This document shows, piece by piece, positions 23,631-26,072 of a stretch of 64,000 nt of DNA. The notes below the pieces were generated by a model that was given only the letters and a program-made list of their open reading frames with translations, had not been told where the DNA came from and did not search any database. This DNA comes from Pseudogemmatithrix spongiicola (lineage in GTDB: Bacteria; Gemmatimonadota; Gemmatimonadetes; Gemmatimonadales; Gemmatimonadaceae): NCBI RefSeq assembly GCF_030623445.1, contig NZ_CP130613.1, positions 310,001 through 374,000 of the forward strand. The letters run 5' to 3'. Position 1 is the stretch's first letter. Each line of letters begins with the position of its first letter. The position numbers and the translations under genes are program-made.

Positions 23631-23662
23631 ACTGCCTTACCACGAAGTGGCTGTGTTGGAAG

Positions 23663-24601
23663 TCAAGCGGTGGTGGGCGTCGGTGACGCCTGCCACCGCG
23701 TTTGATGTTTGACCATCGCGTTGAGGATGACGAGGAGGCGGCGCATGCACGCGGTCAGGGCGAGCTTCTTCGGCTTGCCGGCGGCGACGAGGCGCCGATA
23801 CATCGCGCGTACGACGGCGTTGCAGCGGATCGCCGCGAGGGTCGCCATGTAGAGCCCCGTGCGGACGTCGGCGCGGCCGCCGCGGATGCGCCGCACGCCG
23901 CGCCAGCGGCCCGACTCCTGCGCGTAGGGCGCCAGCCCGACGAGGGCGGCGATCTCCTTCGCGGACAGCGCGCCGAGCTCCGTGAGGCGCGCGATCAGCA
24001 GCCGCGCCGTCTGCGGCCCGATGCCCGGCACGCTCGTGAGGAGCTCCTCCTGCGCGCGCCAGAGCGGCGAGCCCTGGATCCAGCGGTCCGTCTCGTCCTC
24101 GAGGGCCCGGAGCGCCCGCTCCAGCGCGCGGATCGTCTGCCGGACGCTCGGCTGCACGCTGCGGCGCGCCACCGCGAGCCGGTTGTGCTCCATCGTCAGC
24201 ATCTCGACGAGCTGCCGCCGCCGGTCGACGAGCGCCGCGAGCTCCTGCGTCGCCGCGTCGGGCAGCGGCCGCGCGGCCGGGCGCACCGTCGCCGCGAAGC
24301 GCGCGAGCAGCGCCGCGTCGAGCCGGTCCGTCTTCGCCAGCTGCCCGACGCTCTCGGCGAAGCGCCGCACCTGCCGCGGATTCACCACCGCGACCGGCAC
24401 GCCCGCCGCCGCGAGCGCCGCCGTCAGCGGCACGTGGTAGGCGCCCGTCGCCTCCAGCACGACCAGCGTCGGCCCCTGCGCGCCCACGCGCGCCACCGTC
24501 GCGGCGATGCCCGCCGCGTCGTTCGCGTGCTGCCACGCCGCGCCCGTCGCGTCCGCGCCGTCCAGCGTGCCCTGGCTCACATCGATCCCGATGTACGTCA
24601 T
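23663..24601 (-). CDS. IS110-family DEDD recombinase (transposase)
   Basis: 312 residues from ATG 24601. The RuvC-like DEDD residues are visible: Asp in TYIGIDVSQGTLDGA, Glu in TLVVLEATGAYHVPL, and two Asp in QLAKTDRLDAALLARF. The C-terminal half has the family's transposase_20 region, TSVPGIGPQTARLLIA...ELGALSAKEIAALVGLAPYAQESG, which holds the nucleophilic serine region (SGRWRG), and ends in KKLALTACMRRLLVILNAMVKH. It works with a bridge RNA made from its own 5' end to join donor and target. The gene appears intact. Confidence 0.95.
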   Translation of the reverse strand: MTYIGIDVSQGTLDGADATGAAWQHANDAAGIAATVARVGAQGPTLVVLEATGAYHVPLTAALAAAGVPVAVVNPRQVRRFAESVGQLAKTDRLDAALLARFAATVRPAARPLPDAATQELAALVDRRRQLVEMLTMEHNRLAVARRSVQPSVRQTIRALERALRALEDETDRWIQGSPLWRAQEELLTSVPGIGPQTARLLIARLTELGALSAKEIAALVGLAPYAQESGRWRGVRRIRGGRADVRTGLYMATLAAIRCNAVVRAMYRRLVAAGKPKKLALTACMRRLLVILNAMVKHQTRWQASPTPTTA

Positions 24602-24793
24602 CCGTCCCTCGCCGCGTGAGGACCGCGCGCGCCCGGCCTTGCGCCATGCGGGCTCGCGGCCCCAGCGGCTGTTCGGGCGTCCCGCGATCGGTTCGACGAC
24701 GCTCCCGCTTCGTGACGGGCTCTGCACGCCCCTGGCACGACAATCGAGCTGTCGCCGCCCCGATGACTTACCACCATTCGTGTGAGACATACA
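24602..24793 (-). ncRNA. Predicted IS110 bridge RNA
   Basis: Reading the minus strand, a first stem CGAC(A)GCTC/GAGCGTCG (24754-24746 with 24704-24697) encloses a loop whose 5' side has TCGTGCC (24740-24734), identical to the left target plus the first core base, and whose 3' side has CACGAAG (24714-24708), complementary to core CT plus TCGTG of the right target. A GGGC/GCCC hairpin caps it. A second stem CGCCCG/CGGGCG (24679-24674 with 24635-24630) encloses ACAGCCGCT (24672-24664), matching the right-end donor ACAGCCACT with one G-T wobble, and GCAAG (24642-24638), complementary to CTTGT of the left end. It too has a GGGC/GCCC cap. The order LTG-RTG-LDG-RDG is that of IS621. RNA ends are not determined. 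Confidence 0.75.
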
Positions 24794-24818
24794 AGGCACG
24801 AAGACACGAAGAGAGGAT

Positions 24819-26041
24819 GAATTCAAGCAATCAATGCAACAGCTTCGTCGAAGACTTCTGCCGGGGTGCGGAAGTCGAGCGTCTTGCGGGGCCGTCCATT
24901 GAGCTGAGCCGCGACGGCATCGAGCTGCCGCTGCGTAACGTTGGCGAGGCTCGTGCCCGTGGGGAAGTACTGCCGCAGGAGGCCGTTCGTGTTCTCGTTG
25001 GTGCCGCGCTGCCACGGACTGTACGGATCGCAGAAGTAGACCTGCACGCCGGTGGCGACGGTGAAGCGCTGGTGGTGCGCGAGTTCCTTGCCGCGGTCCC
25101 AGGTGAGCGAGCGCGCGACGTGCGCCGGCAGCCGCCGGATCTGGCGGATGAGCGCGGGCACGACGCGGCCCGGCTCCTTGCTCTCGACCTTCACGAGGAT
25201 CGTGAAGCGCGACGTGCGCTCCACGAGCGTGGCGATGTGCGTGTTGCCGCCGCCGGCGAGGAGGTCGCCCTCCCAGTGGCCGGGCACGGCGCGGTCCTCG
25301 ACCTCGGCCGGGCGCGCGCTGATGGGAATGGCATCGACGATCTGCCCGCGCCCCTGGCCCTTGCGCGTCGAGGCGCGGGCGCGCCGCACCACGCGTCCCG
25401 TGCGCAGGTGCCTCAGCAGTTCCTTCTTGAGCACGCCGCGCGCCTGGACGTACAGCGAGCGGTAGATCGTCTCGTGCGACACGTGCAACTCCGGCTCGTG
25501 CGGGTAGGTGCGGCGGAGCCACGCGCTGATCTGCTCCGGTGACCAGCGCAGCTTCAGCTTCGCTGCAATGAGATAGCGCAGGCGCGGCCGGGACGCGAGG
25601 CGGCAGGCCTTCGGCCGACGCGCGGACTTCCACGCGACCGCGTCGGCGCGGACGGCCCGATACTTCGTCGGGCCCCCATGACGTGCGACCTCACGACTGA
25701 TGGTCGATGCGGCACGGCCCAGGGCGCGGCCGATCGCTCGGTAGGATTCGCCGGCGGCGAGCCCGCGCGAGATGCGCTCCCGTTCGTCGAGCGACAGCGC
25801 CAACGCCGATCGTGCACGCAGGCGCGGCGAGATGCCCCCTTGCTTGCGAATCACGCCGTGAAGTGCGCCGGGATCCTTGGCGAGGTCGCGGGCGATCTCG
25901 CGGACCGAGTCACCGGCGCGATAGCGCGCCCAGAGTTCAGCGCGCTGCTGCCACGTGTAGCCGTGCGGGCTGGGGATGAACATCGCGACAACCTCCATAT
26001 AGAAGGAACTATGGAAGGTGTTGCATCGACCCTCTGAATCC
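24819..26041 (-). mobile_element. IS30-family insertion sequence
   Basis: Imperfect terminal inverted repeats flank the transposase: ATTCAAGCAATCAATGCAAC... (24821-24846) and its counterpart at 26014-26039, 19 of 26 matching with the block ATGCAACA perfect. The outer limits could be a base or two further out, and I could not identify a target duplication, so the boundaries are approximate. It sits between the arms of the CTTCGTG repeat, a few bases from IS110. Confidence 0.8.
24823..25983 (-). CDS. IS30-family transposase
   Basis: 386 residues. I chose ATG 25983 because GGAGG lies eight bases before it; an ATG at 25998 overlapping that GGAGG is the alternative. N-terminal helix-turn-helix repeats (RAGDSVREIARDL, LAAGESYRAIGRALGRAASTISREVARHG) precede the family's core: RWSPEQISAWLRRTYP, SHETIYRSLY, then the DDE residues in PGHWEGDLLAGGGNTHIATLVERTSRF, LTWDRGKELAHHQRF and DPYSPWQRGTNENTNGLLRQYFPTG. 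The frame looks intact. Confidence 0.95.
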   Translation of the reverse strand: MFIPSPHGYTWQQRAELWARYRAGDSVREIARDLAKDPGALHGVIRKQGGISPRLRARSALALSLDERERISRGLAAGESYRAIGRALGRAASTISREVARHGGPTKYRAVRADAVAWKSARRPKACRLASRPRLRYLIAAKLKLRWSPEQISAWLRRTYPHEPELHVSHETIYRSLYVQARGVLKKELLRHLRTGRVVRRARASTRKGQGRGQIVDAIPISARPAEVEDRAVPGHWEGDLLAGGGNTHIATLVERTSRFTILVKVESKEPGRVVPALIRQIRRLPAHVARSLTWDRGKELAHHQRFTVATGVQVYFCDPYSPWQRGTNENTNGLLRQYFPTGTSLANVTQRQLDAVAAQLNGRPRKTLDFRTPAEVFDEAVALIA

Positions 26042-26072
26042 AGTAGTCATTCCGTGATGTCGACATGTAATG

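What the first reader, a model, noticed from the sequence alone, without database searches (positions are those of the whole stretch)
24602..24795. A complete IS110 bridge RNA is readable in the 5' end of the element
Four guide segments were located, in the order expected for IS621-type bridge RNAs, each in an internal loop capped by a GGGC/GCCC hairpin. The left target guide is TCGTGCC, identical to the left target. The right target guide is CACGAAG, complementary to CT-TCGTG of the right target, core included. The left donor guide is ACAGCCGCT against ACAGCCACT at the right end of the element, one G-T wobble. The right donor guide is GCAAG against CTTGT at the left end. The target and donor sequences were deduced independently, from rejoining the interrupted repeat. 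The element's end-to-end junction also resembles the IS621 donor as I remember it. Weak point: the second core base in the left target guide is A where T is expected, and the right donor guide is short. Bridge RNAs are known for the family; this guide set and target are probably undescribed.
Basis: partly seen in the sequence, partly recalled or inferred. Interest (0 to 1): 0.9.

Follow-up and report, generated by a model that had tools for sequence, protein, structure and literature searches.

The report
IS110 jumping gene's bridge RNA
A small bacterial jumping gene carries an RNA that spells out both the jumping gene's own ends and the repeated hairpin sequence it jumps into. The reading is correct; the RNA is a new example of the recently described bridge RNAs, and in related genomes its spelling changes to match each genome's own version of that repeat.

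Summary
The window carries an intact IS110-group element (minus strand, 23648-24795) whose 194-nt leader encodes an IS621-type bridge RNA. A covariance model built from 18 relatives, with the window's own clade left out, finds it at 24763-24629 over its full length (E 1.4e-14). That model matches exactly eight places in the genome, which are the eight IS110 copies. Across 36 related RNAs they covary with the element's flanks and ends: right target guide 167/180 matches (shuffled 56±9), left donor guide 243/252 (183±5), right donor guide 144/144 (136.4±0.8), left target guide 180/231 (117±6). The 'short' right donor guide is normal, because it is discontiguous as in IS621. The A at the second core base of the left target guide is a real, clade-specific mismatch. 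The target is the arm of a large palindromic repeat present about 100 times in the genome. In the repeat-bearing relatives the right target guide matches the commonest dialect of that repeat, clearly in two genomes and marginally in two. This is a new member of a known kind; the guide-dialect tracking is the most interesting part. Expression and activity are untested.

The parts
23648..24795 (-). IS110-group insertion sequence (1148 bp counting one CT core, at 24795-24794; the other core copy is AG at 23646-23647 on the + strand)
   Evidence: flank/target rejoining, 3 copies in the genome
23663..24601 (-). DEDD recombinase/transposase, 312 aa
   Evidence: Pfam DEDD_Tnp_IS110 7e-25 and Transposase_20 2.1e-17; PDB IS621 2e-37, ISCro4 8e-37
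24602..24795 (-). left end (5' non-coding leader), template of the bridge RNA
24629..24763 (-). bridge RNA core: target-binding loop followed by donor-binding loop
   Evidence: model R1, 69.2 bits, E 1.4e-14, full length
24733..24741 (-). left target guide GTCGTGCCA: 7 of 9 match the left target; first base and second core base do not
24708..24714 (-). right target guide CACGAAG, 7/7 with CTTCGTG including the core
24706..24707 (-). candidate handshake guide CG after the RTG (1 of 2 pairs with donor bases 6-7)
24664..24672 (-). left donor guide ACAGCCGCT against ACAGCCACT, one rG:dT wobble
24646..24647 (-). distal part of the right donor guide, AU, pairing AT at donor positions 13-14
   Evidence: IS621 scheme in PMC11208158
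24638..24642 (-). right donor guide G-CAAG against CTTG-T
24636..24637 (-). candidate handshake guide GC after the RDG (2 of 2 pairs with target bases 6-7)
24796..24811 (-). left target flank, repeat arm ...CTTCGTGTCTTCGTGC
23640..23647 (-). right target flank CT-TCGTGG, rest of the same repeat arm
23663..23669 (-). region of the TTGACT -35-like box near the right end, which lies 17 nt from TATGTC only when the ends are joined in a circle (coordinates approximate)
   Evidence: the proposed promoter is inferred

Best explanation
This is an intact IS110-group insertion sequence whose 5' leader encodes an IS621-type bridge RNA. The likely cycle is: the element excises as a circle; joining its ends makes the donor ACAGCCA-CT-TGTAT and may build a promoter that transcribes the bridge RNA; the recombinase uses the second RNA loop to hold the donor and the first loop to find TTCGTGC-CT-TCGTG in the arm of a host palindromic repeat; it then recombines at the CT core. 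Sequence anatomy, structure conservation and guide/flank covariation are shown here. Transcription, excision, protein binding and strand exchange are inferred from IS621.
For: Blind covariance-model hit at this place, and exactly the 8 IS110 copies genome-wide. Helices covary among 18 relatives: 29 two-sided changes against 9.4 (sd 2.8) shuffled; sliding partners by one column drops pairing from 94% to 44-54%. Guides covary with flanks and ends in 36 elements, above every one of 20,000 shuffles for each guide. Clear compensatory cases: RTG CACGAAG/CTTCGTG, CACAGAG/CTCTGTG, CACGGAG/CTCCGTG, GGCTGAG/CTCAGCC, AACGCAG/CTGCGTT; RDG CAAG/CTTG, GAAG/CTTC, TAAG/CTTA, CGAG/CTCG. Recombinase homologous to IS621 and ISCro4. 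Three near-identical copies at three loci in the same repeat arm.
Against: No RNA or activity data. The window LTG mismatches at the second core base and at position 1. LTG matches are weaker than RTG matches across relatives and need one base of register freedom either way. LTG and RTG are complementary to each other, so the loop could collapse. The -10 box of the proposed junction promoter is weak (TATGTC), and only 16 of 36 relatives have a good -35 box at that spacing. No Rfam family matched the region at any useful score; whether the held Rfam copy includes a bridge-RNA family was not checked.
Confidence: 0.95

Rival explanations
1. The leader is a structured 5' UTR or regulatory RNA of the transposase gene, and the guide matches are chance or compositional in GC-rich DNA.
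For: GC is 75% and the single-sequence fold is only modestly better than shuffles (z -1.9).
Against: RTG and LTG together appear in 0.02% of shuffled leaders, and guides covary with flanks in relatives above all 20,000 permutations.
Confidence: 0.02
2. Target choice is made mainly by DNA structure (a hairpin, as for other elements that recognise palindromes), and the RNA guides only follow inherited sequence.
For: The targets are arms of long palindromes or, in many relatives, sites that look like integron attC hairpins.
Against: Guide letters change with target letters even between members of one genus. L062 and L077 are one element in two different sequences that share the bases read by the start of the right target guide (CTAGG).
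Confidence: 0.04
3. The copy is a dead relic whose bridge RNA no longer works, the core-base A being a damaging mutation.
For: Second core base of the LTG is A, not U, in the window and in L060.
Against: Open, full-length recombinase; three copies 98-100% identical in protein; the same A is carried by all three copies and by the element of another species, which has itself moved into its own genome's repeat.
Confidence: 0.05

Closest known systems
IS621 (IS110 group, E. coli) and its bridge RNA (PMC11208160, PMC11208158)
   Same: Leader position, two loops in the order target then donor, four guides with core overlap, discontiguous right donor guide, CT core, right donor half CTTGTAT, DEDD plus Tnp-domain recombinase, target in a palindromic extragenic repeat
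   Different: Recombinase only distantly related; left target guide arm about 3 nt longer in this clade; second core base of the left target guide is A; right target guide pairs 7 nt naturally; one more nucleotide between AU and G-CAAG; a different target
ISCro4 (IS110 group; PDB 9t56)
   Same: Homologous recombinase (8e-37)
   Different: Its RNA and target were not compared here
IS1111 and IS110 seekRNA elements (PMC11187229)
   Same: RNA-guided target choice; natural reprogramming between relatives reported
   Different: IS1111 members carry the RNA downstream of the gene and have long subterminal inverted repeats; this one carries it upstream
REP-targeting insertion sequences ISPpu9, ISPpu10, ISPa11, ISRm22 (PMC1525189)
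   Same: Insertion into a dispersed palindromic repeat
   Different: Different repeat family and different hosts; the study predates bridge RNAs

Membership tests
IS110 family, IS110 group | DEDD RuvC-like domain (PF01548) plus Tnp domain (PF02371) with conserved SG motif | tested here: met
   (both above gathering score); catalytic EATG, KTD..DA and ESG stretches align to IS621
IS110 family, IS110 group | Long non-coding left end, short right end, no long subterminal inverted repeats | tested here: met
   left end 194 nt, right end about 15 nt after the stop codon; no long inverted pair between the ends listed
IS110 family, IS110 group | CT core at both ends, no longer target duplication | tested here: met
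   all copies flanked by CT; rejoined target occurs uninterrupted 66 times
IS621-type bridge RNA | Conserved secondary structure with target-binding loop then donor-binding loop | tested here: met
IS621-type bridge RNA | LTG and RTG complementary to bottom and top strand of the target | tested here: met
   RTG 7/7; LTG 7/9 in the window; covariation in relatives
IS621-type bridge RNA | LDG and RDG complementary to the element's own joined ends | tested here: met
IS621-type bridge RNA | Handshake guides pairing with bases 6-7 of the other DNA | tested here: inconclusive
   after the RTG 43/72 against 30.4 (sd 3.1); after the RDG 36/66 against 31.4 (sd 3.0), not significant
IS621-type bridge RNA | Promoter rebuilt at the circle junction | tested here: inconclusive
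   TTGACT-17-TATGTC; good -35 box in 16 of 36 relatives
IS621-type bridge RNA | RNA expressed, bound by the recombinase, directs recombination | not testable with these tools
   needs experiment
IS1111 group | RNA downstream of the gene and 7-17 bp subterminal inverted repeats | tested here: not met
   RNA upstream; no such repeats listed

The most novel reading that the evidence does not exclude
The target guide is being re-tuned by evolution to the host's own dialect of a palindromic repeat, independently in two IS110 lineages. In the window's genome the repeat arm is mostly TTCGTG and the guide is CACGAAG. In a congener it is mostly TCTGTG and the guide is CACAGAG, while that element's left guide still reads closer to the old dialect. 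In a third genome, of another genus, TCCGTG is the commonest form and the guide is CACGGAG. The RNA-guided element would thus track a fast-evolving host repeat.
Probability: 0.5. Interest if true: 0.6.

Novelty: new member of a known kind. Interest (0 to 1): 0.42.

Why it matters
It adds a bridge RNA supported by covariation, with a full 7-nt right target guide and eight genomic insertions in two lineages. It also offers a natural series of guide/target pairs in congeners that differ by one or two bases, which makes the question of how bridge RNAs acquire new targets directly testable. The abundant, dialect-variable hairpin repeat makes an unusually clean record of natural reprogramming.

Tried and rejected
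Rfam search for a curated match: nothing at gathering score, and only one chance-level hit at E 4.7. Sigma-70 scan of the linear element: none; only the joined ends give a candidate promoter. RNAalifold on the full diverse leader set gave a poor global fold; trimming to the core gave the expected structure. Literature searches for the repeat sequence and for IS110 with such a repeat in Gemmatimonadota-like hosts found nothing relevant. Chance or UTR-only reading rejected. AlphaFold was not run: sequence homology to IS621 made it unnecessary.

Full report
WHAT IS THERE. On the minus strand of the window lies an IS110-group insertion sequence, 23648-24795, with an open 312-aa recombinase at 23663-24601. 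Pfam finds both IS110 domains, and the closest solved structures are the IS621 and ISCro4 recombinases. The genome holds three near-identical copies of this element (family A) and five copies of a second element with about 50% protein identity (family B).

THE TARGET IS REAL. The three family A copies sit at three loci, all between ...CTTCGTGC-CT and TCGTGGT. The rejoined sequence CTTCGTGNCTTCGTGG occurs 66 times uninterrupted in the genome, 0 times in the reversed control, mostly as inverted pairs about 100 bp apart. The ten pairs inspected are the outer arms of long, nested palindromes of 54-214 nt.

STRUCTURE. I trimmed 18 related leaders, left the window's clade out, and aligned them. RNAalifold, given no guide information, recovers the two-loop architecture, with an unpaired, invariant A in the first stem where IS621 has its flipped-out A43. 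The named helices show 29 two-sided changes against 9.4±2.8 in shuffles, and pairing collapses when partners are slid by one column. A covariance model from these 18 matches the window at 24763-24629, minus strand, over its full length with E 1.4e-14; the next window hit has E 0.37. In the whole genome it finds eight places, which are exactly the eight IS110 copies.

GUIDES. Guide columns were fixed by the alignment and compared with each element's own flanks and ends. Over 36 distinct leaders: RTG non-core matches 167/180, shuffled 56±9; LDG 243/252, shuffled 183±5; RDG 144/144, shuffled 136.4±0.8; LTG (33 elements with a full left flank) 180/231 with one base of register freedom either way, shuffled 117±6. 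None of 20,000 shuffles reached the observed value for any guide. With one element per distinct RTG (22) the result stands: 97/110 against 33±6. Two cautions apply. Element ends were located with short patterns that fix the core and part of the donor, so donor scores are partly constrained, whereas non-core target bases were free. Related elements are not independent. The strongest single facts are compensatory changes: RDG GAAG with end CTTC (family B), TAAG with CTTA (L075, L140), CGAG with CTCG (L082).

The right donor guide is not short. In IS621 it is discontiguous, AU then CAAG with flipped-out bases between (PMC11208158), and the window has AU-GGC-G-CAAG, one base longer. The A at the second core base of the LTG is real, shared with L060, and unlike most relatives; this clade also has three extra nucleotides in the left target guide arm. 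Because the target is a tandem TCGTG repeat, the two target guides are complementary to each other, and the lone MFE fold closes the loop with part of the LTG paired to the RTG. Whether this inhibits the RNA is unknown.

GUIDE AND REPEAT DIALECT. Counts of the tandem arm in its TTCGTG, TCTGTG and TCCGTG spellings are 101/10/3 in the window's genome (family A RTG CACGAAG), 0/192/27 in congener G015 (RTG CACAGAG), 25/0/38 in G067 (RTG CACGGAG), 21/18/2 in G008 (RTG CACGAAG), and 1/0/1 in G304 (RTG CACGGAG). G110 has none, and its element has an unrelated guide. The match is clear in G000 and G015; in G067 and G008 two spellings are of similar number, so only the direction agrees. Family B in the window's genome carries CACGGAG and pairs with TTCGTG through one wobble; one copy (L056) sits in a CTCTGTGC-CTCCGTG site. 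Within the genus, 3 of the 4 repeat-rich genomes carry such an element and 0 of the 13 others do (4/680, p about 0.006 by hand; the fourth repeat-rich genome is only 71% complete). The element in G015 has a re-tuned right guide but a left guide (TCGTGTC) still nearer the other spelling. On a recombinase tree the elements with this target type fall in two separate clades; at least two changes of target type are forced by well-supported branches. This suggests, but does not prove, convergent targeting; exchange of the target loop by recombination is not excluded.

MECHANISM. Shown here: anatomy, conserved structure, guide covariation, insertion specificity. Inferred from IS621 (PMC11208160, PMC11208158): circular intermediate, promoter at the joined ends (TTGACT-17-TATGTC), RNA binding by the recombinase, strand exchange at CT. 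Handshake guides are only partly supported: significant after the RTG, not after the RDG.

VERDICT. The finding is correct. It is a new member of a known kind: Durrant et al. predicted bridge RNAs in 85.7% of the IS110-group elements of ISfinder (PMC11208160). Targeting of palindromic repeats by such elements is also known (PMC1525189). The dialect tracking is the part worth following.

Noticed in passing
L066, L067, L068, L132, L064, L063, L069, L133, L070, L078, L081, L083, L084 (right flank CTAACG); L044, L047, L048, L080 (right flank CTTGTTA): Many relatives with an upstream bridge RNA appear to target integron attC-like sites: their right target guides end in CGTTAG or read TAACAAG, and L068 is followed by a full attC-like palindrome ending GTTAGGC. 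attC targeting is known for IS1111-type elements with a downstream RNA (PMC11187229); here the RNA is upstream.
   Followed up: partly
window 24815-26056: An IS30-type element (7 copies in the genome) lies inside the same palindromic repeat as the IS110, between its two arms.
   Followed up: partly
L054 (G000:C1:3081013-3083428): A family B and a family A IS110 sit in opposite arms of one hairpin repeat, in opposite orientation, about 250 bp apart between the matched regions.
   Followed up: no
L087, L089, L092, L094, L096, L100, L109, L111, L113, L115: The host repeat is a family of nested palindromes (54-214 nt) with shared outer arms and variable inner palindromes, abundant in 4 of 17 genomes of the genus and absent or nearly so in the rest. 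How it spreads is unknown and no paper was found for the sequence.
   Followed up: partly
L060, left target guide in the leader: In G015 the right target guide fits the TCTGTG repeat but the left guide (TCGTGTC) fits it poorly, as if re-tuning were incomplete.
   Followed up: partly
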